Positions 943-12,207 of a stretch of 12,270 nt of DNA are shown here, piece by piece. The stretch covers positions 1-12,270 of the forward strand of contig CAKZMS010000473.1 in the NCBI GenBank assembly GCA_937128785.1, in the 5' to 3' direction. The notes beneath the pieces are model-generated. The model saw only the letters and a list, made by a program, of their open reading frames with translations, was not told the origin of the DNA and made no database searches. The stretch is from an uncultured Opitutaceae bacterium (GTDB taxonomy: Bacteria > Verrucomicrobiota > Verrucomicrobiia > Opitutales > Opitutaceae). Both the position numbers and the translations under genes were made by a program. Position 1 is the first letter of the stretch. Each line of letters starts with the position of its first letter.

Positions 943-2454
943 GTGACTACTTCCGCTGCCCCACTCCACCTTTCGATCGCAACCAATTCCCCTAGTGGGC
1001 GTATTCCCCGTGAGCTCTACGGCCACTGCGCCGAGCATCTCGGTCGTTGTATCTACGAAGGGATCTGGGTCGGGGAGGACTCGGAGATTCCAAATCAGCG
1101 CGGACTGCGAACCGATGTCCTAAACGCGCTTAAGCAACTCTCCATCCCCGTCCTGCGTTGGCCCGGTGGTTGTTTCGCCGACGAGTATCATTGGCGCGAC
1201 GGCATCGGTCCCCGCGCGGATCGCCGGGCCATGATCAACAACCACTGGGGCGGCGTCATCGACTCCAATCAGTTCGGCACGCACGAATTCATGAACCTGG
1301 TCGAAGCCCTCGGCTGCGACGCCTACATCGCGGGCAACGTGGGTAGCGGTTCCGTTCGCGAAATGCAGGAATGGGTTGAGTATCTTACCGCCGACGTCGA
1401 CTCGACCCTCGTGCAGGAACGCCGGGCCAATGGGCGCGAGGCGCCATGGAGCGTGCACTACTTCGGGGTGGGCAATGAAAACTGGGCCTGCGGGGGCAAC
1501 ATGCGGCCCGAATACTACGCCGACGAATATCGCCGCTACCAAACCTACGTGCGGCACCACGACCCCGAGCATAAAATATTCCGCATCGCCTGCGGGCCCA
1601 ATCAGGACGATTACCGCTGGACGGAAGTGCTGATGGAGCGTGCCGCCGAGCACATGGACGGGCTTTCCATGCACTACTACTGTCTGCCCACCGGCGATTG
1701 GCAGAACAAAGGCGCGGCCACCAACGTCGACGAGGCGGACTGGATCGGCATGTTTGTGCGGGCGGCGCGCATGGATGAACTCATCGCCAAACACAGCGCG
1801 ATCATGGACCGCTTTGACCCGAAGAAACGGGTGGCCCTCATCGTGGATGAGTGGGGTGCGTGGTATGATGTCGAACCGGGGACCAACCCGCGGTTCCTCT
1901 ACCAGCAAAACAGACTGCGGGACGCGCTGATCGCCGCCCAGCACCTCCACATTTTCCACCACTACCGTGATCGCGTGCGGATGGCCAACATCGCCCAAAC
2001 GGTCAACGTGCTCCAAGCCATGATCCTGACCGATGGCCCCCGCATGGTGTGCACGCCCACCTACCACGTCTTCGAAATGCTGCAGGTACATCAGGACGCC
2101 ACCTTCCTGCCAATCGAGCTGTCACCGATTCCTGAATACATCCATGCGGACCAATCAATTCCCGCCGTCGATGCATCGGCTTCGCAGGCCGGCGACGGCA
2201 CCGTCAATCTCTCGTTGATCAACTTCGATCCCGCGAACGGCCATGACCTCAAGCTGCAGCTGCCGGCCGAAGCGTTCGCCGCCAGATCCATCAGCTCCCG
2301 TGTCCTCACCGCCGATGCGATGGATGCCCACAACACCTTCGATGCCCCCGCGCGCGTCGTGCCCACCACCGGCGATCCAGCGAGCATCACCGCAGACGGC
2401 ACGCTCCGATTTCATCTTCCGGCCAAGTCCGTCGCGCTTCTCTCCATTTCCTAA
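943..2454 (+). CDS. GH51 alpha-L-arabinofuranosidase (intracellular)
   Basis: The 503-residue product is a retaining exo-acting alpha-L-arabinofuranosidase of glycoside hydrolase family 51, which releases terminal arabinofuranose from arabinan, arabinoxylan or arabinogalactan oligosaccharides. Visible hallmarks: [20 protein letters not shown] near the N-terminus, [15 protein letters not shown] around residues 70-84, the acid/base Glu179 in GVGNENW and the nucleophile Glu303 in [12 protein letters not shown] (beta/alpha)8 barrel occupies roughly residues 30-390, followed by a C-terminal beta-sandwich ending in VALLSIS. The length matches the usual compact intracellular GH51 of about 500 residues. 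There is no signal peptide, so substrates must be imported first. The start is GTG 943; it has no Shine-Dalgarno, but the family N-terminus aligns from here. Only 6 bp separate its stop from the next start, so the two are cotranscribed. GH51 also contains a few endoglucanases, but the motif set fits arabinofuranosidase. A family name such as abfA would be conventional. Confidence 0.95.
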
Positions 2455-2460
2455 AACCAG

Positions 2461-4761
2461 ATGAATCAAATCACGATCTCCACCGCGGCCACGTTGGCCG
2501 AAAAAGAAGCCGCTGCCGTGCTCGCCGAACGCACCGCTGCCCCTGTCGCCGTGTCCGATCAGGCGGGCGCCGGATTCAACATCGCCTTGGCCGAACGGGG
2601 CTGGCCGGGGCCGACCGAGCCCCCCGCGGAAGACCAGTGGATCTGGCTGCGGCAATCCGCTGATGGCGCCGGCGAGTTGGTCGCCACCCAAGGCAGCTTC
2701 CTCTTCACCGGCCTGCATCTGCTCGCCCAGGGCTTGCCCGAGAATCTACGGGATTCACTCGCCGACGGGATTTTGTTGCCTGCTTCCTTTTCCCTTCACC
2801 GTCCGCACTACGATGCCTGCCTGACCCAATACTGGCGTTCCGCCCGGGGCTTCCAGGACGAGGCCTATGTGCGCAAACTGGCGGAGACCGGCTTCACCCA
2901 CTGTGAGGTCAACGCCCTGCAGGCCCACTTCCCCTACGAAGAATCAATCGAGTCGGAATTTTACCCGCAGTTCTACACTTACTGCGCCGGCTTCAATCAC
3001 TTCGTGAACAGCAAACTCACGGAAGGCCTCTGGCCGGAGCACTATCTCGAAGCCAACCTCAACCGGCTCAAACACATCGCCACCCTCGCCAAACGCTACG
3101 GTCTGAAGCCGGGGCTGCTCATGTTCGAACCGCGCAACCTGCCGGAGAAGTTTTTTGTCAAATACCCCACCTTGCGAGGTGCCCGCATCGACCATCCGTT
3201 CCGGTCGCGACTACCCCGCTACTGCTTGGCCCAGGATCACCCGATTTCCCAGCGGCACTACCGCGAGGTGATGGAGCGACTGATGGATGCCGTGCCCGAG
3301 CTCGACTACCTTTCCGTCTGGTCGAATGACAGCGGGGCCGGATTCGAACACACCTCCTCCCTCTACATCGGCCGCAACGGTGGCCCCTACATGATCCGCG
3401 AATGGCGCGACCACGACCAGATCGCCGAAACCGCCGGCAAGGGGGTGGTCCAATGGATGGAAAACCTCCGCACCGCCGCCGCCAAAACCAACCCGGATTT
3501 CAAGGTCGCCCTGCGCCTGGAGCCCTTCAAAAACGAACACGACGCCATCGTGTCCGGCCTCGGTGGCAATCTCACCTGGGAAGGCCCCTCCATGCTGGTC
3601 AAGGGCTACGACCTTCCGTATCCACATCCCAAATACCCAAAACTCATGGGCGTGGCGGGCTCGGCGCTGCACAATACCATGGATGAATCCGAGGGCCCGG
3701 CCCTGGCGAAATCACAGGCGGCGGGAGTGGACCCCCTGCTGAACTACAGCGGTTCCGGCGTGATGAATCACGAACCGCTGCTGGGCATCCCCTTTCCCCG
3801 GATGCTGCATCAGAAAATCTCCGCCCTGCGCGAGACGGGATTCAACCGGGCGAGCTGTTTCGGAGGCTTGGCCCACGCCGAGGCCACGCCCTATTGGCCG
3901 AACCCCATCGCCATCCGGGCCGCGCAGTTCATGCCGGACGAGTCCATCGACGACCTGTTGCTCAACTACGCCACCGACCTCGTCGGTCCGGCCCACTCGG
4001 CCAACCTTGATGCCGCCTGGGCGGAATTCGAAGCCGCGATGATCTGGCAGCCTCTGGTGGGGCTCTACAGCGCCTTCGGCTACTGCTGGCAGCGCACGTG
4101 GGATCGCCCCTTTGTTCCGGATATCGAGGCCGTGCCGCTGCACGAACGGCGCTACTACGAGAAACACGGGTGCTTCCAGCACAACAACCCGGGCGTCAAC
4201 GATCTCGGCAAGGATGTGCTCTTCGACCTCATCACCCGCGAGCAAGGTGACAAAATGGGCCGCGACATGGACACCCAGGTGCTGCCGCGGCTGCGTGAAT
4301 TGATCGCGAAACTCACCACCATCATCGAATCCCTCGACGGCGAGGCCGATGAACCCGCCCATCGCGTTTTCGTCGACCTCCGGGACCGCGTGCGCGGCTT
4401 CCTCCACTGGGTCACCGCCTTGCGCAGCGTCTGCACGTGGTGCGCGACGGTTTACGGCTACCTCGAAGCGAAGGATGAGACCGAACGCGCCGAACACGAA
4501 GCACGCCTCCAGGCCGCCATCGATCTGGACCTCGAAAATACGGCCGGCTTGCTCGAGCTCATCGAAACCAGCGACACCGAGTTCATGGTCGTTTCCGGGG
4601 CCGGCAATCACACCTCCTTCTACGGCGAAGACCTGCCCGATCTGCTGCGCAAGCGCATCGCCCTGACGCAGCAATACCGCCATCACAAACCCCGCATCGA
4701 ACGCGGCATCCTTTGGCGCCCCACCCCCGGCACCCAGTGGCCGGAAGGCTGGCTGGAGTAA
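2461..4761 (+). CDS. Glycosidase-like TIM-barrel protein with GH67/GH20-type N-terminal domain, family unassigned
   Basis: The 766-residue protein has no signal peptide and so is probably cytoplasmic. Residues 1 to about 110 look like the small alpha/beta domain that precedes the barrel in GH20 and GH67 enzymes (ATLAEKEAAAVLAERT, then a strand-helix segment SFLFTGLHLLAQG). Residues about 115-500 read as a (beta/alpha)8 barrel: strand-end motifs include FTHCEVNALQAHF (145-157), KPGLLMFEPRNLPEKFF, LSVWSNDSGAGFEH (284-297) and VALRLEPF (349-356). Asp290, Glu296 and Glu354 sit at strand ends and are the best candidates for catalytic acids. Residues about 500-766 are mostly helical, as in GH67 alpha-glucuronidases, but the diagnostic GH67 signatures are not evident, so I do not call it alpha-glucuronidase. 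It lies 6 bp after the GH51 gene, which implies a joint role in oligosaccharide trimming, possibly on glucuronoarabinoxylan fragments. No Shine-Dalgarno is visible; ATG 2461 is the natural start. No strong terminator is seen in the 72 bp after the stop. Confidence 0.72.
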   Translation: MNQITISTAATLAEKEAAAVLAERTAAPVAVSDQAGAGFNIALAERGWPGPTEPPAEDQWIWLRQSADGAGELVATQGSFLFTGLHLLAQGLPENLRDSLADGILLPASFSLHRPHYDACLTQYWRSARGFQDEAYVRKLAETGFTHCEVNALQAHFPYEESIESEFYPQFYTYCAGFNHFVNSKLTEGLWPEHYLEANLNRLKHIATLAKRYGLKPGLLMFEPRNLPEKFFVKYPTLRGARIDHPFRSRLPRYCLAQDHPISQRHYREVMERLMDAVPELDYLSVWSNDSGAGFEHTSSLYIGRNGGPYMIREWRDHDQIAETAGKGVVQWMENLRTAAAKTNPDFKVALRLEPFKNEHDAIVSGLGGNLTWEGPSMLVKGYDLPYPHPKYPKLMGVAGSALHNTMDESEGPALAKSQAAGVDPLLNYSGSGVMNHEPLLGIPFPRMLHQKISALRETGFNRASCFGGLAHAEATPYWPNPIAIRAAQFMPDESIDDLLLNYATDLVGPAHSANLDAAWAEFEAAMIWQPLVGLYSAFGYCWQRTWDRPFVPDIEAVPLHERRYYEKHGCFQHNNPGVNDLGKDVLFDLITREQGDKMGRDMDTQVLPRLRELIAKLTTIIESLDGEADEPAHRVFVDLRDRVRGFLHWVTALRSVCTWCATVYGYLEAKDETERAEHEARLQAAIDLDLENTAGLLELIETSDTEFMVVSGAGNHTSFYGEDLPDLLRKRIALTQQYRHHKPRIERGILWRPTPGTQWPEGWLE

Positions 4762-4833: not shown

Positions 4834-5682
4834 CTACTCGCCGTGCGCCTTTCGGCGGAACTGGGAGGGCGTTTCGCCGACCACCTGCCGGAAGGTTTTG
4901 GAGAAGTGGAACACGTCACAGAAACCCAACTCATCGGCGAGAGCCTTGAAACTGTGCGTGCCCTGATAGATCGCCGCACACGCGTGTTCGATGCGCCGAC
5001 GTTTTTGATAATGCCCCGGCGACTCGCCCACCCGGTCAGCGAACTTCTTGCGGAAATTCTCGTAACTCAAACCCACCTCGCGGGCAACCGCCTGTGGGGT
5101 CATGGAGCGCTCGGACATCCGCCCGCCCAGCAAACGCTGACTTTCCCACAGCCAACTTTCGTCGGCTGAATGCACGGACTCCTCATGCGTCGCCAGAAGG
5201 TCGAGCATCGCCTGCGTGACCCCACCCAAAACCCGCAGGGCGGCGGCATGATTGGGGGTGCCATCCGCTGGAAAGGCCTCGTGTAAACGCCCGCGCCAGT
5301 AATCGACGGGCTCGGCGTGCGTGACGGGTCGACGGGGATCCAAAATTCCCTCAGCTGCCCAGTGCTCCCACTGCGCCCCCTCCAGAATCACGTAAACCTG
5401 CGTCCAGTTCCGCCCCTGGTTCGGACCATACGCGTGCGCCACCCCCGGATGTATCCAAACCACGTCGCCCGAACACAGCTCCGAACGCTCCCCCAATTCA
5501 TCGATATAATAGCCTTCGACATCGGCCATGTAGACGAATCCGTAGGATCCCATAACGCGCATCGCCTGAGGATCAATTCCGCCGACGTCCTTTACCTGTC
5601 CCGCCGCCACGATCGTGGTCTTCCCCACTGATACAGGCTGCGTAAGCCACGGCTCGTCTTTGATTCGGTTAATAGCGGACAT
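4834..5682 (-). CDS. AraC-family transcriptional regulator with cupin sensor domain
   Basis: The 282-residue regulator is complete. Residues about 25-110 form a cupin-like effector-binding fold, seen in EGYYIDELGERSELCSGDVV followed by IHPGVAHAYGP, with the GD and PG..H pattern typical of AraC arabinose/rhamnose-type sensors. The C-terminal 90 residues hold the double helix-turn-helix: MTPQAVAREVGLSYENFRKKF, then HSFKALADELGFCDVFHFSKTF and GETPSQFRRK. It is not closely similar by eye to the other AraC protein in the window. ATG 5682 is supported by a perfect TATAAT 10 bases upstream, although that spacing would give a very short leader. The gene converges with the glycosidase-like gene (72 bp between stops) and diverges from the oxygenase gene, which makes the oxygenase unit its likeliest target. 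Control of the glycosidase or symporter units is also possible. Confidence 0.93.
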   Translation of the reverse strand: MSAINRIKDEPWLTQPVSVGKTTIVAAGQVKDVGGIDPQAMRVMGSYGFVYMADVEGYYIDELGERSELCSGDVVWIHPGVAHAYGPNQGRNWTQVYVILEGAQWEHWAAEGILDPRRPVTHAEPVDYWRGRLHEAFPADGTPNHAAALRVLGGVTQAMLDLLATHEESVHSADESWLWESQRLLGGRMSERSMTPQAVAREVGLSYENFRKKFADRVGESPGHYQKRRRIEHACAAIYQGTHSFKALADELGFCDVFHFSKTFRQVVGETPSQFRRKAHGE

Positions 5683-5811
5683 GAGCTCCCAAATTATACA
5701 AATTTAATCCCAATTCAACCATGTTCGATCGGGTCCGACATGTGTATCTTTCCGACCTCGCTTAACCCACGGCCACACCGCCTCCTTCTCACCTTATCCC
5801 CGAGACTTATC
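5683..5811. promoter_or_regulatory. Divergent promoter region (AraC / PhyH unit) with minus-strand TATAAT
   Basis: This 129-bp gap serves two divergent genes. On the minus strand a perfect -10 TATAAT lies at 5698-5693. TTGAAT lies 14 bp upstream, too close for an ideal -35; the better-spaced hexamers (16-17 bp) match the consensus poorly. Around it is the inverted repeat AAATT (5691-5695) and AATTT (5701-5705). A second imperfect dyad pairs CATGT (5720-5724) with ACATG (5738-5742), a plausible operator between the two promoters. No convincing plus-strand promoter was identified; TATCTT at 5745-5750 is a weak candidate. All functional roles are inferred. Confidence 0.5.
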
Positions 5812-6738
5812 ATGAGCACGCTCGCACCTGCCCTGCCGCAAATCCGTTCCTACGGACACGACCTCGACATGGACGAAGACAAAATCGGTCTTCTCCGCGA
5901 CTCTTCCGACGCGGAAACCGACTTCGAGGAACTGCGCCGCCGCTTCGACGAAGATGGTTACCTCTACATGAAGGGCTACCTCGGCCGAGACAACGTGCTC
6001 GAAGCGCGTCGCGAGATCGCCAGCCGACTCGCTGGCGCCGGGGCGCTGCATCCCGACCATCCGAGCATGGACGGAATCAAAGCAGACGACTTTGACGCAT
6101 TCTTTCGCCCGGAGCTTTCCGAGAACAACGCCCCTCTGCAGAACCTGCTCTACGGCGAACGTATGGCGGGATTCTACCAGAAGTTCTACGAAGAGGACAT
6201 CCGCCATTACGACTTCACCTGGTTGCGCGCCATGCCGCCGGGCAAAGGAACCAACCCGCATTGTGACCTTCCCTACATGGGCCGCGGCACCCACCGCCAC
6301 ATGACGGCGTGGGTTCCCTACGGTGACATCTCCTTTGAACTCGGTGGCCTGATGGTTCTGGAGGGTTCCAACAAACGCATGGATCTCCTCGAGAATTACG
6401 TTTTCCGCGACGTCGATGGCTACTGCGAGAACAAGCCCGAGCAAGTCGCCCGCGCTGAGGATGGCGGTTGGACCTTTACCGGTTCGCTTTCCCACAACCC
6501 TCCAATCGTCCGCAACAAGTTTGGCGGGCGCTGGCTGACGACCGAATTCGAGGCCGGCGATTTTCTCACCTTCGGCATGTTCCTCGTGCACGCCTCTCTC
6601 GACAACCAAACCGAGAACCGCTTGCGCATTTCCAGCGACAGCCGCTACCAACGCGCCTCCGAACCCATCGATGAGCGCTGGGTCGGCCCAAACCCTCCGG
6701 GCCACGCCAAAGCCGGCAAGCGCGGTCGCATCTGCTGA
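5812..6738 (+). CDS. Phytanoyl-CoA dioxygenase (PhyH)-family Fe(II)/2-oxoglutarate oxygenase
   Basis: The 308-residue cytoplasmic protein belongs to the PhyH branch of non-haem Fe(II)/2-oxoglutarate-dependent oxygenases, which hydroxylate small molecules while turning 2-oxoglutarate into succinate and CO2. The iron triad is visible: His150 and Asp152 in NPHCDLPYMG, and distal His260 in FGMFLVHASLDN. Arg272 in RLRISSDSRYQ is the expected 2-oxoglutarate carboxylate binder. The N-terminal FDEDGYLYMKGYL is the usual PhyH opening. I chose ATG 5812 because the family homology begins shortly after it. An in-frame ATG at 5740 would add 24 proline- and arginine-rich residues unlike the family and would overlap the promoter region. 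A weak GAGA lies 8 bases upstream. The substrate cannot be told; many bacterial PhyH proteins act on secondary metabolites or osmolytes. The following diiron gene starts 42 bp downstream and is probably cotranscribed. Confidence 0.92.
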   Translation: MSTLAPALPQIRSYGHDLDMDEDKIGLLRDSSDAETDFEELRRRFDEDGYLYMKGYLGRDNVLEARREIASRLAGAGALHPDHPSMDGIKADDFDAFFRPELSENNAPLQNLLYGERMAGFYQKFYEEDIRHYDFTWLRAMPPGKGTNPHCDLPYMGRGTHRHMTAWVPYGDISFELGGLMVLEGSNKRMDLLENYVFRDVDGYCENKPEQVARAEDGGWTFTGSLSHNPPIVRNKFGGRWLTTEFEAGDFLTFGMFLVHASLDNQTENRLRISSDSRYQRASEPIDERWVGPNPPGHAKAGKRGRIC

Positions 6739-6780
6739 GCCTTCTCCTCTCCCTGCCACCAACCTCCATCGCCTCATCCC

Positions 6781-8100
6781 GTGGTCGCTCCGCAATCTTC
6801 CTCCCCTTCCACCTCTTCACCATCCGGATCCCGCACCGCTGCCGTCCAGGAGATGGCCAAGCTGCAACGCCAGCTGTTCGAACTCGAGCGGGCGTTCATT
6901 GCCGGTGCCACGACCCTGGTTCCCCGGGTCGGCGAACCGGAACTGAAGTATCTCATCTGCCAGCATGTCTGGGAAAGTGCCGGGCATGGTCGCTTCCTTC
7001 GTGAACGCGGACGGGAGCTCAGCGGATTCGGCAAATCCGACTCGATCAGCGACGAAATCTGGAAAATTTTCCACGAGGCCGCGGTCGCCAATGATGAGGA
7101 CAAGGCACTCGCCGGATTCTACCGCGTGCTCAAGCCCCACCTCCTGGCGACCTACCGTCACTATCTGGAAACCACTCATCACCTGGCTGACTGGCCTTCC
7201 CGCAAACTCGTGGAGGAGTTTATCTCCGACGAAGAACGCCACCTCGAGGAAATCGAACCTTGGCTGAAGAGCAGCGATGCCATCCAGGCTTGGTGCGGAC
7301 ACCTGCGCGTGGCCCTGACCTCACTACCGCGTTCCGCCAGCAAGACGCCCGCCATTGAACTCCCCGACTCGTTCCGGTGGTTTCACGCGGAATCTCCCTA
7401 CCAACATCCGGAGACCTGCAACCGCGCCCCTTATCCGACCTGCTCCAGCGTGTTCAGCGAGGACCCCAAGGAAACTCCCATCGTGCGCGCATGGCTCCAA
7501 GATCCCCAGACCGATCCGCGCACGATACGCGCAATGATCTACGTCTGGCTCATGATGGAGTTGGATGCCGTCGACTATCTTTCCACCGTATTTGTCGAAA
7601 CCCTCCAGGCACCGTTTGACCTGCATCACGACCTCGCCCGTCACCTGTGGGATGAGTCCCGTCACAGCCAGTTCGGTTTCCGCCAGTTACCGAAACTCGG
7701 ATTCGATCTCATGACGGTCGAGCACTCGCTGGATCTCTACAACATCCTGGTAAAGATGCCGCCGGCGGAACGCTACGCCATGATGACCATGGAATTTGAA
7801 GCGGGCAGCTTCCCGATCAAAGCCCACATCATGGATCGGGTGCGGGAGCTCAACGACTTCGAGGCCGACACCCTCTTGGCCTTCGATCGAAACGATGAGC
7901 AGAACCACGTGCGTTACGGTCACCAGTGGCTGCCTACGATCATGAAACTCTGCGGCCACGAGGAACCGGTGGAGGACTTTGTGAAATCCACCCAGGCCAA
8001 TTTCGCCAAGATGGCTGAGCTCCATGGGGGCAAAACCCCCCATGCGCTTGCCCCCGAGGAGCGGCTAACCGGCGAGAAGATCCTCGCGGGCATCAGCTGA
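6781..8100 (+). CDS. Two-domain ferritin-like diiron protein, function unknown
   Basis: The 439-residue product contains two successive four-helix bundles of the ferritin-like type. The C-terminal bundle has the full diiron ligand pattern: Glu260 in helix 1 (WLMMELDAVDYL), Glu292-x-x-His295 in helix 2 (HLWDESRHSQFG), Glu338 or Glu340 in helix 3 (MTMEFEAG) and Glu373-x-x-His376 in helix 4 (RNDEQNHVRYG). The N-terminal bundle has Glu34 or Glu36, Glu130 and Glu151-x-x-His154, but its second helix reads WESAGHGRF. Aligned with WDESRHSQF, this puts Ser66 at the ExxH glutamate. A linker around residues 175-235 includes three cysteine or proline-rich turns. There is no signal peptide. The gene starts at GTG 6781 or at ATG 6853; the 24 extra residues are serine- and proline-rich and dispensable. 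I do not recognise a characterised family; candidate roles are an oxygenase, an oxidase, or a partner of the adjacent PhyH enzyme. It ends the unit at a strong terminator. Confidence 0.8.
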   Translation: MVAPQSSSPSTSSPSGSRTAAVQEMAKLQRQLFELERAFIAGATTLVPRVGEPELKYLICQHVWESAGHGRFLRERGRELSGFGKSDSISDEIWKIFHEAAVANDEDKALAGFYRVLKPHLLATYRHYLETTHHLADWPSRKLVEEFISDEERHLEEIEPWLKSSDAIQAWCGHLRVALTSLPRSASKTPAIELPDSFRWFHAESPYQHPETCNRAPYPTCSSVFSEDPKETPIVRAWLQDPQTDPRTIRAMIYVWLMMELDAVDYLSTVFVETLQAPFDLHHDLARHLWDESRHSQFGFRQLPKLGFDLMTVEHSLDLYNILVKMPPAERYAMMTMEFEAGSFPIKAHIMDRVRELNDFEADTLLAFDRNDEQNHVRYGHQWLPTIMKLCGHEEPVEDFVKSTQANFAKMAELHGGKTPHALAPEERLTGEKILAGIS

Positions 8101-8347: not shown

Positions 8348-10270
8348 ATGCTCCGTCCTACCCCCTTTAGAATCTTTTCCGTTCTGCTTTGCTGCCTTTG
8401 GCTCCAGGCCGATCTCGTCGCCGAAAACGAGTTGGTGAAGGTCGAATCCAGAGCCATCGCGAGCACCGACATCTCCGGACTCGTTCGCGAAGCCACGCCG
8501 CTTCCCGAGGGCCATGCGACGCCACCCTCCGAGCTGATCGATGGCGTCACGAGTGCATCCGGCCAGGCCTTCATCCTCGGACTGACCCACTTGGCAGGCG
8601 ATGAGTATGGCATCCTCACTTATCACGCCATCACCGACACCTGGGTGCTGGCGGGCCGCAATCAATTGGATGCGGCCCCGACGTCCGTGCAGCCGATCGA
8701 CCGCGGATTCTTGGTCACCACCGACGACCCGTCCTCTCCCGTCGCCCTGGAGCTGGTTCAAATCAAGAAGTCGCTGCCCGTCATCGATTGGGTGATGATC
8801 GTAGGCTACCTCCTCGCGATGCTCGGGGTAGGCTGGTATTGCTACAACCGTGAGAAACGCAGCGCCGGATCGACCACCGACTATTTTCTGGCCGGCCGGG
8901 ACGTTCCTTGGTGGGCCGCGGGGCTGAGCCTTTACGCCACCGGCACGAGTGCGATCAGCTTCATCGCCATCCCCGCCCTCTCCTTTCGCACCGATTGGCT
9001 GTATCTGTCGCAACAATGTATCGGGGTCTTCGGACTGTTGATCGTGGCCTACAAGATCATCCCGGTGATCCGTCGGCTGAATCTCATCTCCATCTACACG
9101 TATCTGGAGACGCGCTTCCATCCGTCGATTCGCTTAATGGCCAGTGCCCTGACGATCCTGTTCCAACTGGTGGGCCGATTGAGTATCGTACTCTACCTGC
9201 CGGCCTTGGCCATCGCCAGTGTGACGGGAGCGGATGTGGTGATGTGCATCGTGCTGATGGGTATCGTCACCACGCTCTATACCCTCGTAGGTGGCATGAA
9301 GGCAGTGATCTGGACCGATGTCATTCAGGTGTTTGTCATGGTCGGCGGGGCGCTGTTTGCGATCGGCTATGTGATTGCCGGCGTGGACGGGGGCGTGGGC
9401 GAAATCATCTCCATCACGAGTGCCAACGATAAGGCTCACCTGTTCGACTTCAGCTGGGATTTCGCCACTCCGACCGTTTGGGCCATTATCCTCGTGGTGT
9501 TGACCGATGTTCCCACCTGGCCGAAGGAACAGATCATGATGCAGCGGGTGTTGGCGACGCGGGATGACAAGCAGGCGCGCTCATCCGTGCTCATGCTCGC
9601 CGCCGCCGTTATTCCGGGCAGCTTCCTGTTCTACTCGATCGGCACCGCGCTCTACGCGTTCTACAAATCCAATCCCGAACGACTCAATCCGCTGATCGAT
9701 ACGGATGCCACCTTCCCAGTCTTCATCGCGGCTGAACTCCCCATGGGCATCACCGGATTGATCATCGCCGGCCTGTTCGCCGCATCGATGTCGACTCTCT
9801 CCAGCGGTCTGAACAGCGTGGCCACGCTCACCTCCATCGATTTCTACGAACGGTTGGCCAAGAACGCCTCGCAGAAGACCAGTCTAAAACTTGCTTACGC
9901 TGTCACGATTCTCTCGGGTATCATCAGCACGGCCGTCGCTGTGCTCTTCACTTTCTTCGATATCAAATCGATGTTCGACGCGATGCTTCAACTTACAGCC
10001 ATTTTGGGCGGCGGATTCGCCGGCACCTACGCGCTGGGTCTCTTCACCAAACGGGCCACCTGGCAGGGCGCTTTGTTGGGCACCGCAGCCAGCGTGGCCG
10101 TCGCTCTGATGTTGCGCACCGTCATCAGTCCCATCCTGCTGAACCCCGCCGCGATTGCCGCCTGCATGATCGTAGGCTACGGCGCCTCGTATCTCTTCCC
10201 GGCTCCCAAACAAAATTTGGACGGCCTCACCATATTCTCCGTTCGCTCAAAACCTACCGAATCACCATGA
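8348..10270 (+). CDS. Sodium:solute symporter (SSS family) with signal peptide and Kelch-like N-terminal extension
   Basis: The 640-residue inner-membrane protein is a sodium-coupled transporter of the SSS family, which includes sugar, sialic acid and carboxylate carriers. Residues 1-25 look like a signal peptide (a basic start, hydrophobic FSVLLCCLWL, possible cleavage at LVA-E). Residues 26-145 form a soluble segment that should face the periplasm; within it Y92 to W99 (YHAITDTW) matches a single blade of the Kelch propellers that are fused to SSS carriers in related proteins. The first transmembrane helix starts near residue 146 (VIDWVMIVGYLLAML), and about 13 helices follow. Family marks include DYFLAGRDVPWWAAGLSLYATGTSAIS, YTLVGGMKAVIWTD and LFAASMSTLSSGLNS, the last near the conserved sodium site. 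ATG 8348 is preceded by a weak CAGG. It is first in an operon and its stop overlaps the next start by 4 bp. The substrate is likely a sugar or sugar acid, by context. Confidence 0.93.
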   Translation: MLRPTPFRIFSVLLCCLWLQADLVAENELVKVESRAIASTDISGLVREATPLPEGHATPPSELIDGVTSASGQAFILGLTHLAGDEYGILTYHAITDTWVLAGRNQLDAAPTSVQPIDRGFLVTTDDPSSPVALELVQIKKSLPVIDWVMIVGYLLAMLGVGWYCYNREKRSAGSTTDYFLAGRDVPWWAAGLSLYATGTSAISFIAIPALSFRTDWLYLSQQCIGVFGLLIVAYKIIPVIRRLNLISIYTYLETRFHPSIRLMASALTILFQLVGRLSIVLYLPALAIASVTGADVVMCIVLMGIVTTLYTLVGGMKAVIWTDVIQVFVMVGGALFAIGYVIAGVDGGVGEIISITSANDKAHLFDFSWDFATPTVWAIILVVLTDVPTWPKEQIMMQRVLATRDDKQARSSVLMLAAAVIPGSFLFYSIGTALYAFYKSNPERLNPLIDTDATFPVFIAAELPMGITGLIIAGLFAASMSTLSSGLNSVATLTSIDFYERLAKNASQKTSLKLAYAVTILSGIISTAVAVLFTFFDIKSMFDAMLQLTAILGGGFAGTYALGLFTKRATWQGALLGTAASVAVALMLRTVISPILLNPAAIAACMIVGYGASYLFPAPKQNLDGLTIFSVRSKPTESP

Positions 10271-11343
10271 GCAAAACCTATCGCGCCGTTCTCGTCGGCA
10301 CCGGATCCATCTGCGACGCCCACCTGCGGGCGGTTGAGTCAATCAATGACCGCGTCGAGCTGGTGGCCGCAGTTGATATCGACCCCGAACGCGTGAAGAC
10401 CTTTTGCGAGCGCGCCAAAGTGCCGCACGCCTTCACCGACTTCGACGAAATGCTTGAGGAGATCGGTCCGGATTTGGTGTTGATCGCGACCCCTCCGAGC
10501 AGCCATGCCGAAATGAGCATCAAGGCCATGGAAAAAGGTGCCTGGGTGCTGTGCGAAAAACCACTTTGCGGCTCTCTGGCCGAACTCGACGAAATCCGCG
10601 CGGCCGAACAACGCACGGGGTGCTACACCGGCTGCGTGTTCCAGATGCGGTTCGCCTCCTCCAATCTCCACCTCAAGCGCCTCGCCGCCGCCGGTCAGCT
10701 GGGCAAGCCGCTGATCGGTGTGTGCAATACCCTGTGGTATCGCGATGAGGCCTACTACGCCGTGCCGTGGCGCGGTCGTTGGGAGACCGAACTCGGCGGC
10801 CCCACTATGGGACTCGGCATCCATGCGATGGACCACTTTCTCGATATCTTCGGCGAGTGGGCAGAAGTCCGCGCCATGGCCGGCACGCTCGATCGCGACA
10901 TTGAAGTGGAAGATGTCTCGATGGCGTTGGTGCGCTTCCAGAGCGGCGCCTTCGGTTCCATCGTCAACAGTGCTCTCAGCCCGCGGCAGGAGACCTACCT
11001 GCGACTCGACTACCAACGCGCCACCGTCGAGCTCACCCATCTCTACGGCTACACCAAGGACGACTGGAAACTCACCCTCACTCCGCCCGCGCAAGACGAT
11101 GCCTTGCAGCAGGCCTGGCAAAGCTCGCCGCCCGACGTCGGCTCCTCCCACGGTGCCCAACTGCGCGCCTTTGTGCAGGACATGGACCGCGGGGAGTGCC
11201 CCCACACTTCCGGCGTTGAAGCCCGCCGCACCCTGGAGTTTTTGACCGCGATCTATAAGTCCGCGTTCACCAACCAGCCGATCGCACGGGACTCGATCCA
11301 AGCGGGCGACCCCTACTACCAGAAGCTTTCCGGGGACCGGTAG
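10267..11343 (+). CDS. Gfo/Idh/MocA-family NAD(P)-dependent oxidoreductase
   Basis: The 358-residue cytoplasmic enzyme has the two-domain layout of the Gfo/Idh/MocA family, which oxidises, reduces or epimerises sugars and cyclitols using NAD(P). The Rossmann fold opens with AVLVGTGSICDAHLRAV, followed by VAAVDIDPERV for the adenosine ribose and LVLIATPPSSHAEMSIKAM. The catalytic lysine is Lys98 in CEKPL. The C-terminal alpha/beta domain carries GGPTMGLGIHAMDHFLDIFG, with His186 and Asp189 in the usual GIHxxD position. The ATG lies within the symporter's stop (ATGA, 4-bp overlap), which implies translational coupling. Coupling to a transporter and an epimerase-like gene points to metabolism of the imported sugar. 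The exact substrate, and whether the reaction is oxidation or a transient oxidation-elimination step, cannot be told. Confidence 0.93.
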   Translation: MSKTYRAVLVGTGSICDAHLRAVESINDRVELVAAVDIDPERVKTFCERAKVPHAFTDFDEMLEEIGPDLVLIATPPSSHAEMSIKAMEKGAWVLCEKPLCGSLAELDEIRAAEQRTGCYTGCVFQMRFASSNLHLKRLAAAGQLGKPLIGVCNTLWYRDEAYYAVPWRGRWETELGGPTMGLGIHAMDHFLDIFGEWAEVRAMAGTLDRDIEVEDVSMALVRFQSGAFGSIVNSALSPRQETYLRLDYQRATVELTHLYGYTKDDWKLTLTPPAQDDALQQAWQSSPPDVGSSHGAQLRAFVQDMDRGECPHTSGVEARRTLEFLTAIYKSAFTNQPIARDSIQAGDPYYQKLSGDR

Positions 11344-11352
11344 ATTCCTGCC

Positions 11353-12207
11353 ATGCTCAAGCTGGCCAACGATCAGCTCCGGATCGACGTGCTTGATCCC
11401 ACCGCCAACGCGGATTTGCTGGGACCTCGATTCTGCGCCGGGGCCTTTGTCTGGCAGATCCATGATGCCGCGGCCGGCCCCTTGTTGAGCGGCCCCGAGG
11501 GTCCCGAGCCCACACCCGATCCCTTCAACGGTCATGGCATCCCGGAAGCATGCCGGGATCGCGCGCGCTCGGGCCAGGCCTGGCTGTGGCAGGACGACGA
11601 AGGTTTCGCTCCCGGCGTCGGAACCCTGCAGCGCAATGCCGACGGCGTGTTCATCAGCCAACCGTGCAACTGGCACCTGGACATCGGACCCACCCGGGCA
11701 GAGTTCCGATCCCGCCACGCGGCCGCCGGCTATGAAGCCGAGCTGACCCGCACGCTCGAACTCGACGGACGTACCCTCCAAAGCCACAGCCGCCTGACCA
11801 ACCGCGGAAAAAAACCAATGGAATTGGAGTGGTTTGCGCATCCCTTTTTCGCCCTCGATTCCCAGGGTGCGATCGCCGTCGAACTGCCGCCAGGTGCTTC
11901 GATCGCTCCGGATAGCGGGTTCCTCCTCGAGGCCAACATCCTCCGCGGCGCGCGGCGCTACTTCGGTAAAGACGATGGCGCGTTCACCCTTCCCGACGGA
12001 TTAACCCAGCGGACCCTTGACGTTAACATCTCCCACCCGGCGCTGAAAAACGGCATTCAATTTAATACGGACTTCGTGCCATCCGAGTGCCCGATCTGGA
12101 TGAATGGATTCACCTTCTCCATCGAGCCCTATCAACGGCTGTCGGTGGCAACCGGAGAAACCCGCGAGTGGCAACTCACCTACGTCTTCAGTCCGGCCCT
12201 GACATAG
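11353..12207 (+). CDS. Aldose-1-epimerase-like (galactose mutarotase-fold) protein
   Basis: The 284-residue cytoplasmic protein reads as the beta-supersandwich of the aldose-1-epimerase superfamily, which interconverts anomers of free or phosphorylated sugars. Candidate active-site residues fall in the family order: His61 in FNGHGIPEA, His163 in EWFAHPFFALD (compare NHxYFNL in GalM) and Glu258 in FSIEPYQRLS (compare EPQ in GalM, the general base). The opening LGPRFCAGAFVWQI is the usual first sheet. It is shorter than E. coli GalM by about 60 residues and clearly divergent from it, so it may act on another sugar or serve only in binding. It follows the dehydrogenase after 9 bp and is probably the last gene of this operon. 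ATG 11353 is chosen because no earlier start fits; no Shine-Dalgarno is visible. No obvious terminator follows within the 63 bases left in the window. Confidence 0.85.
   Translation: MLKLANDQLRIDVLDPTANADLLGPRFCAGAFVWQIHDAAAGPLLSGPEGPEPTPDPFNGHGIPEACRDRARSGQAWLWQDDEGFAPGVGTLQRNADGVFISQPCNWHLDIGPTRAEFRSRHAAAGYEAELTRTLELDGRTLQSHSRLTNRGKKPMELEWFAHPFFALDSQGAIAVELPPGASIAPDSGFLLEANILRGARRYFGKDDGAFTLPDGLTQRTLDVNISHPALKNGIQFNTDFVPSECPIWMNGFTFSIEPYQRLSVATGETREWQLTYVFSPALT

What the first reader, a model, noticed from the sequence alone, without database searches (positions are those of the whole stretch)
2461..4761. Unclassified 766-residue glycosidase-like enzyme cotranscribed with a GH51 arabinofuranosidase
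The protein combines a GH20/GH67-type N-terminal alpha/beta domain, a TIM barrel and a long helical C-terminus, yet lacks the signatures I would need to place it in GH67, GH20 or GH115. Strongly polar strand-end motifs (SNDSGAGFEH at 288-297, RLEPF at 352-356, FEPRNLPEKFF) look catalytic. Six bases separate it from a GH51 gene, so it probably removes a different decoration from the same oligosaccharide. It could define a new glycoside hydrolase family.
Basis: partly seen in the sequence, partly recalled or inferred. Interest (0 to 1): 0.7.

Follow-up and report, generated by a model that had tools for sequence, protein, structure and literature searches.

The report
Unclassified GH67-like sugar-cutting enzyme family
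This gene encodes what is probably a cell-internal sugar-chain-cutting enzyme from a common but unnamed family; it is distantly related to plant-fibre enzymes, has a changed active-site motif, and travels with an oxygenase gene far more often than with its arabinose-cutting neighbour.

Summary
ORF 2461-4761 (766 aa) follows a genuine GH51 gene after 6 bases, matches no Pfam or NCBIfam model at E<=1 and no PDB sequence meaningfully. Its AlphaFold model (pLDDT 91.5) has the GH67/GH89/GH20/GH138 architecture.

A second unclassified group ("SEN") links it to GH67: TARGET-SEN 99.8% probability over 474 columns, SEN-GH67 95.5% over 123. In that register the conserved GH67/SEN Glu falls on Ser291, while the preceding Asp290 is invariant (60 of 60). 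It fails GH67 membership and is a credible new family with Asp290 as candidate acid. Activity is unproven.

The GH51 link is local: within 2 kb in 5 of 80 genomes with close relatives, all in the window's genus. The recurrent partners are a PhyH-type oxygenase (co-occurring in 84 of 94 genomes; within 2 kb in 60), a ferritin-like protein, a Gfo/Idh oxidoreductase, an epimerase-like protein and an AraC regulator. Methyl-removal genes recur near a minority. Most likely a cytoplasmic glycosidase for an oxidised or O-methylated oligosaccharide; substrate unknown.

The parts
2461..4761 (+). The 766-aa unclassified GH67-like protein (TARGET). I see no signal peptide at MNQITISTAATLAEKEAAAVLAERT, so probably cytoplasmic (my reading; no predictor was run).
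2461..2814 (+). N-terminal alpha/beta domain (about residues 1-118)
   Evidence: secondary structure of the model; alignments to GH20C, GH67 and GH89 begin at residues 1-9
2815..3930 (+). TIM barrel (about residues 119-490); strand 4 = 283-287
   Evidence: barrel-only matches span about 109-494
3127..3129 (+). Glu223 at the end of barrel strand 2 (59 of 60)
3190..3192 (+). Asp244 of the RGxRxD motif (60 of 60)
3328..3330 (+). Asp290 of the N-D-S-G motif just after strand 4 (60 of 60); candidate general acid
3331..3333 (+). Ser291 (60 of 60); occupies the column of the conserved Glu of GH67 (DSEG) and of the SEN group
3520..3522 (+). Glu354 (RLEPF), just after strand 5; 51 of 52 close/intermediate, 0 of 8 distant relatives
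3580..3582 (+). Glu374, in strand 6; 51 of 52 close/intermediate, 0 of 8 distant
3772..3774 (+). Glu438 (NHEPLLG), after strand 7; 51 of 52 close/intermediate; Asp in 3 of 8 distant; candidate base
3931..4758 (+). Long helical C-terminal domain (about residues 491-766)
943..2454 (+). GH51 alpha-L-arabinofuranosidase, 6 bases upstream; within 2 kb only in the window's genus among the genomes examined
4834..5682 (-). AraC-type regulator, divergent; recurrent neighbour (15 of 20 loci; query taken from one of them)
5740..6738 (+). PhyH-type Fe(II)/2-oxoglutarate oxygenase; strongest partner; keeps HxD...H and R
6781..8100 (+). Protein with two ferritin-like segments carrying ExxH motifs (PF04305 DUF455 over its second half); recurrent partner
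8348..10270 (+). Sodium:solute symporter (PF00474), possible importer; near 5 of 20 relatives, 1 of 20 controls
10267..11343 (+). Gfo/Idh/MocA oxidoreductase; recurrent partner (13 of 20)
11353..12207 (+). 284-aa protein with no family hit; looks aldose-epimerase-like to me (inference); recurrent partner (12 of 20)

Best explanation
TARGET is a cytoplasmic, probably exo-acting glycoside hydrolase of an undescribed family in the GH67/GH89/GH20/GH115/GH138-like superfamily. An oligosaccharide or glycoside, perhaps imported by the adjacent symporter, would bind at the top of the TIM barrel. Asp290, in the invariant D-S motif at the end of strand 4, would protonate the leaving group, replacing the Glu that GH67 and the related SEN group carry one residue later. 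A second carboxylate (Glu354, Glu374 or Glu438) would act as base. The freed sugar would pass to the epimerase-like protein and the Gfo/Idh oxidoreductase. The PhyH oxygenase, with the ferritin-like protein, would oxidise or O-demethylate it. Shown by computation: fold (predicted), homology, conservation, gene linkage. Inferred: hydrolysis, acid identity, substrate class, roles of the partners.
Against: No activity, ligand or coordinates were available, so pocket geometry is unknown. The GH67/SEN Glu is missing (Ser291), which could mean another chemistry or none. Direct TARGET-GH67 and TARGET-GH89 comparisons are weak (E 8.8e-4 and 0.04), and the distant relatives against GH67 give E 0.15. 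SEN also resembles GH20 and GH89 weakly (E 7.6e-4, 8.4e-4), so GH67 is not singled out strongly beyond its 123 columns. No candidate base is universal. Gfo/Idh and AraC genes are common in general (recalled); PhyH is not within the fetched region of 7 of 20 close relatives, so the oxygenase may be a separate module. At least 64 of the 80 genomes with close relatives lack an orthologue (69% or more) of the Rieske gene.
Confidence: 0.55

Rival explanations
1. One reading: an accessory glycosidase that strips a second decoration from the same arabinose-containing oligosaccharide as the GH51.
For: 6-base gap in the window; GH51 directly adjacent in G000, G090, G111, G128; order URO-D, GH51, Rieske, TARGET in G020.
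Against: Only 5 of 80 genomes with close relatives have GH51 within 2 kb, all one genus; 8 more have it 14-21 kb away. GH51 is near 3 of 20 relatives, against 13 for PhyH and Gfo/Idh.
Confidence: 0.2
2. A sugar-active enzyme that is not a hydrolase (lyase, isomerase, epimerase or phosphorylase): the superfamily acid was lost and Asp290 serves another chemistry.
For: Conserved Glu of GH67/SEN replaced by invariant Ser291; recurrent oxidoreductase and epimerase-like partners.
Against: The listed structural matches that span most of the model are glycosidases. GH115 and GH67 share a fold with no conservation of active-site residues, and both are hydrolases (PMC3879575, passages seen).
Confidence: 0.15
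3. A non-catalytic sugar-binding or regulatory pseudoenzyme.
For: Loss of the superfamily Glu; adjacent divergent AraC regulator.
Against: Invariant Asp, Arg and Tyr over relatives down to 20-25% identity, and several further conserved acids in close relatives, are more than simple binding would need.
Confidence: 0.1

Closest known systems
GH67 alpha-glucuronidases
   Different: No PF07488 match; the conserved Glu of the DSEG motif is Ser291; direct profile comparison only 23% probability.
SEN group (unclassified 715-767-aa Verrucomicrobiota proteins; my label)
   Same: Homologous over barrel and C-terminal domain (474 columns, 99.8%); shares the EPRxxPxxFF block and the strand-4 region.
   Different: Has a Glu where TARGET has Ser291 (11 of 11 proteins; S-E-N in 9). 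Itself uncharacterised: 3 of 9 scanned proteins had sub-threshold DUF4838, GHL6 or GH67M matches, and one more (L115) scores over the GH67M cut-off, 25.5 against 23.5 bits.
GH89 alpha-N-acetylglucosaminidases
   Different: Below the Pfam cut-off; weak profile comparison (E 0.04; distant relatives 0.0041).
GH138 (BP0997, pectin RG-II enzyme)
   Same: Top Foldseek hit, E 1.4e-15, TM about 0.5.
   Different: 11-12% identity; not found by sequence among PDB chains.
GH20 and GH84 hexosaminidases
   Same: Shared fold; acidic residue just after strand 4.
   Different: No Pfam match and no profile match (E 0.25, 0.52); N-D here where these have D-E and D-D (recalled).
GH115 alpha-glucuronidases
   Different: No Pfam family match; no GH115 profile was built here.

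Membership tests
GH67 | Match to PF07488 (GH67 middle domain) above cut-off | tested here: not met
   0 Pfam families at E<=1 for TARGET; PF07488 not among the 5 families hit by any of 60 relatives at E<=0.1
GH67 | Conserved Glu of the DSEGxPGP motif (general acid, recalled) | tested here: not met
   Ser291 in that column in the TARGET-GH67 alignment and through TARGET-SEN, distant-SEN and GH67-SEN; Ser in 60 of 60
GH67 | Alpha/beta N-domain + TIM barrel + helical C-domain fold | tested here: met
   (predicted model)
GH89 | Match to PF05089 above cut-off | tested here: not met
   none for TARGET; 1 of 60 relatives at E 0.016, below cut-off
GH20 | Match to PF00728 above cut-off and a D-E pair (recalled) after strand 4 | tested here: not met
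   no Pfam hit; N289-D290 instead
GH84 | Match to PF07555 above cut-off | tested here: not met
   hhalign E 0.52
GH115 | Match to its Pfam model above cut-off | tested here: not met
   0 Pfam families at E<=1
GH138 | Sequence similarity to the characterised member BP0997 (in the PDB) | tested here: not met
   not among PDB sequences at E<=10 with the single sequence or the 60-row profile; fold similarity only
Any other CAZy family without a Pfam or PDB representative | Match to the CAZy/dbCAN model | not testable with these tools
   no CAZy/dbCAN library available
Glycoside hydrolase (as a function) | Hydrolysis of a glycosidic bond | not testable with these tools
   no experiment possible

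The most novel reading that the evidence does not exclude
TARGET founds a new glycoside hydrolase family in which the superfamily's acid has moved from Glu (S-E-N / S-E-G) to the preceding Asp (N-D-S-G). It would be the dedicated glycosidase of a cytoplasmic oxidative pathway (PhyH oxygenase, tandem ferritin-like diiron protein, Gfo/Idh, with Rieske, URO-D and MetE-type demethylation modules in some genomes) that consumes O-methylated or otherwise capped plant or algal oligosaccharides in Opitutaceae.
Probability: 0.25. Interest if true: 0.7.

Novelty: new variant of a known kind. Interest (0 to 1): 0.5.

Why it matters
Close or intermediate relatives occur in 94 of 200 sampled genomes of this bacterial family, yet among the 120 listed database relatives the source-given names are 'hypothetical' or 'uncharacterized', with one exception (P0019, a GH42-type name not supported by Pfam). 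If it is a hydrolase, it adds a family and an active-site variant to a well-studied superfamily. Its linkage to an oxygenase and a ferritin-like protein points to a possible unrecognised route for processing modified sugars, testable with one purified protein.

Full report
What is there. ORF 2461-4761 encodes 766 aa and starts 6 bases after the stop of a genuine GH51 gene at 943-2454. The window lies in a draft genome (774 contigs); the two named relatives found in genome contigs are Opitutaceae MAGs. The protein matches no Pfam or NCBIfam model at E<=1 and no PDB chain meaningfully by sequence. A search of 5.8 billion proteins found 977 relatives at E<=1e-3; none of the 120 listed has a precomputed Pfam domain. 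Matches of any strength occur in 106 of 200 genomes of the same family and 58 of 387 across the phylum, 22 of them in the same family; the others are distant or weak. The same draft genome holds two paralogues, at 55% and about 33-37% identity.

Sequence links. Weak phylum-wide hits led to a second unclassified group of 715-767 aa, which I call SEN after its strand-4 motif. In 11 of 11 such proteins a Glu stands there; 9 read S-E-N. Pfam gave sub-threshold DUF4838, GHL6 or GH67M matches for 3 of 9 scanned, and one further member, L115, scored over the GH67M cut-off in the genome search (25.5 against 23.5 bits). Profile comparison: TARGET-SEN 99.8%, E 8.4e-29, 474 columns; distant TARGET relatives-SEN 99.7%, E 4.4e-26; SEN-GH67 95.5%, E 1.3e-8, 123 columns; SEN-GH20 25% and SEN-GH89 24% (E 7.6e-4, 8.4e-4); SEN-GH84 E 0.068; ten comparisons with five unrelated families, all E>=0.02. 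TARGET-GH67 directly was 23%, E 8.8e-4; distant relatives-GH67 E 0.15. The printed alignments agree on the register after strand 4: N289-D290-S291 stand against M-S-E in SEN and D-S-E in GH67. That this Glu is the GH67 general acid is recalled. So TARGET has Ser at the acid column and an invariant Asp just before it.

Conservation. In 60 rows (48 close at 54-100% identity, 4 intermediate at 33-34%, 8 distant at 20-25%), Asp290, Ser291, Arg242, Asp244 and Tyr302 are in 60 and Glu223 in 59. Glu354 is in 48, 3 and 0; Glu296 in 48, 4 and 0; Glu374 in 48, 3 and 0; Glu438 in 47, 4 and 0, with Asp in 3 of the 8.

Neighbourhood. In 200 genomes, TARGET (80 genomes close, 14 intermediate) and orthologues of the window's PhyH gene co-occur in 83, or 84 when a 72% fragment in G032 that I had left out is added. 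That leaves 10 with TARGET only, 6 with PhyH only and 100 with neither, uncorrected for phylogeny. Among the 71 co-occurring genomes with a close TARGET, 65 have both on one contig and 60 within 2 kb. Of 13 intermediate-relative genomes with PhyH, 7 have both on one contig and 6 within 13 kb. GH51 is within 2 kb in 5 of 80, all the window's genus, and at 14-21 kb in 8 more. In 20 hand-picked close-relative loci against 20 control regions: AraC 15 vs 0, Gfo/Idh 13 vs 0, PhyH 13 vs 0, ferritin-like 13 vs 0, epimerase-like 12 vs 0, ABC exporter-type 6 vs 0, SSF 5 vs 1, Rieske 5 vs 0, URO-D 5 vs 0 (one of them only 30% identical), MetE-like 4 vs 0, GH141-like 4 vs 0, GH51 3 vs 0. The AraC, ABC, Rieske, URO-D, MetE and GH141 queries came from these loci, so one hit of each is by construction.

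Methyl theme. A VanA-type Rieske gene, orthologous at 69% or more, occurs in 22 of 200 genomes. Of these, 16 have a close TARGET, and it lies within about 6 kb of TARGET in 6 (G064, G020, G116, G197, G071, G047; four genera); in G004 and G174 it is 38 and 56 kb away and in the other 8 it is on another contig. Hence 64 of 80 close-TARGET genomes show no such gene. In G020 the order is URO-D, GH51, Rieske, TARGET. L065 adds methylene-THF reductase, pterin-binding and amidohydrolase genes; L066 has a P450. A cytochrome P450 takes part in oxidative demethylation of 6-O-methyl-D-galactose in marine bacteria (PMC10033563, start of abstract seen). The window itself has no Rieske gene of this type, so this is a lead only.

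Mechanism. I favour a cytoplasmic glycosidase with Asp290 as acid, feeding an oxidative sugar pathway. Fold, homology, conservation and linkage are computed results; hydrolysis, the acid role and the substrate are inferred. Among 10 scanned neighbours of distant relatives were UxuA, RraA-like and Gfo/Idh genes (L085), GH39-type and Gfo/Idh (L087), Gfo/Idh and sigma-54 (L097), but also a GntR/solute-binding fusion (L096), a TonB plug protein (L086) and a beta-helix protein (L084). This fits carbohydrate catabolism loosely.

Verdict. A credible unclassified family in a known superfamily with a changed strand-4 motif; the GH51 link is local. New variant of a known kind.

Noticed in passing
window 5740-8100: PhyH-type oxygenase (HxD...H...R kept) followed by a 439-aa protein with two ferritin-like segments. 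In the clustering both occur in the same 14 loci, window included; the ferritin-like protein is very conserved (mean column identity 78% in 14 rows).
   Followed up: partly
L143-L151, L153, L115: SEN group: 715-767-aa Verrucomicrobiota proteins with a conserved Glu (mostly S-E-N) after strand 4, unclassified, linking TARGET to GH67.
   Followed up: partly
L065:12015-19001: Cluster of URO-D, MTHFR (DUF5981), pterin-binding, amidohydrolase, VanA-type Rieske and MetE-like genes near a TARGET homologue.
   Followed up: partly
window 11353-12207: 284-aa recurrent partner with no Pfam or NCBIfam match at E<=1 and no meaningful PDB sequence match.
   Followed up: no
G115, G152, G095, G119, G073, G065, G136, G166, G099, G049: TARGET homologues occur as adjacent or near-adjacent pairs, 53-59% identical to the window protein.
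   Followed up: no
L073, L076, L077: Near TARGET homologues: amidohydrolase, 2-hydroxyacid dehydrogenase, SDR and zinc alcohol dehydrogenase genes that look to me like an oxidative sugar (fucose-type) pathway.
   Followed up: partly
L005 / L008 (G111:C77): A homologue at about 80% identity with an in-frame TGA near its start.
   Followed up: no
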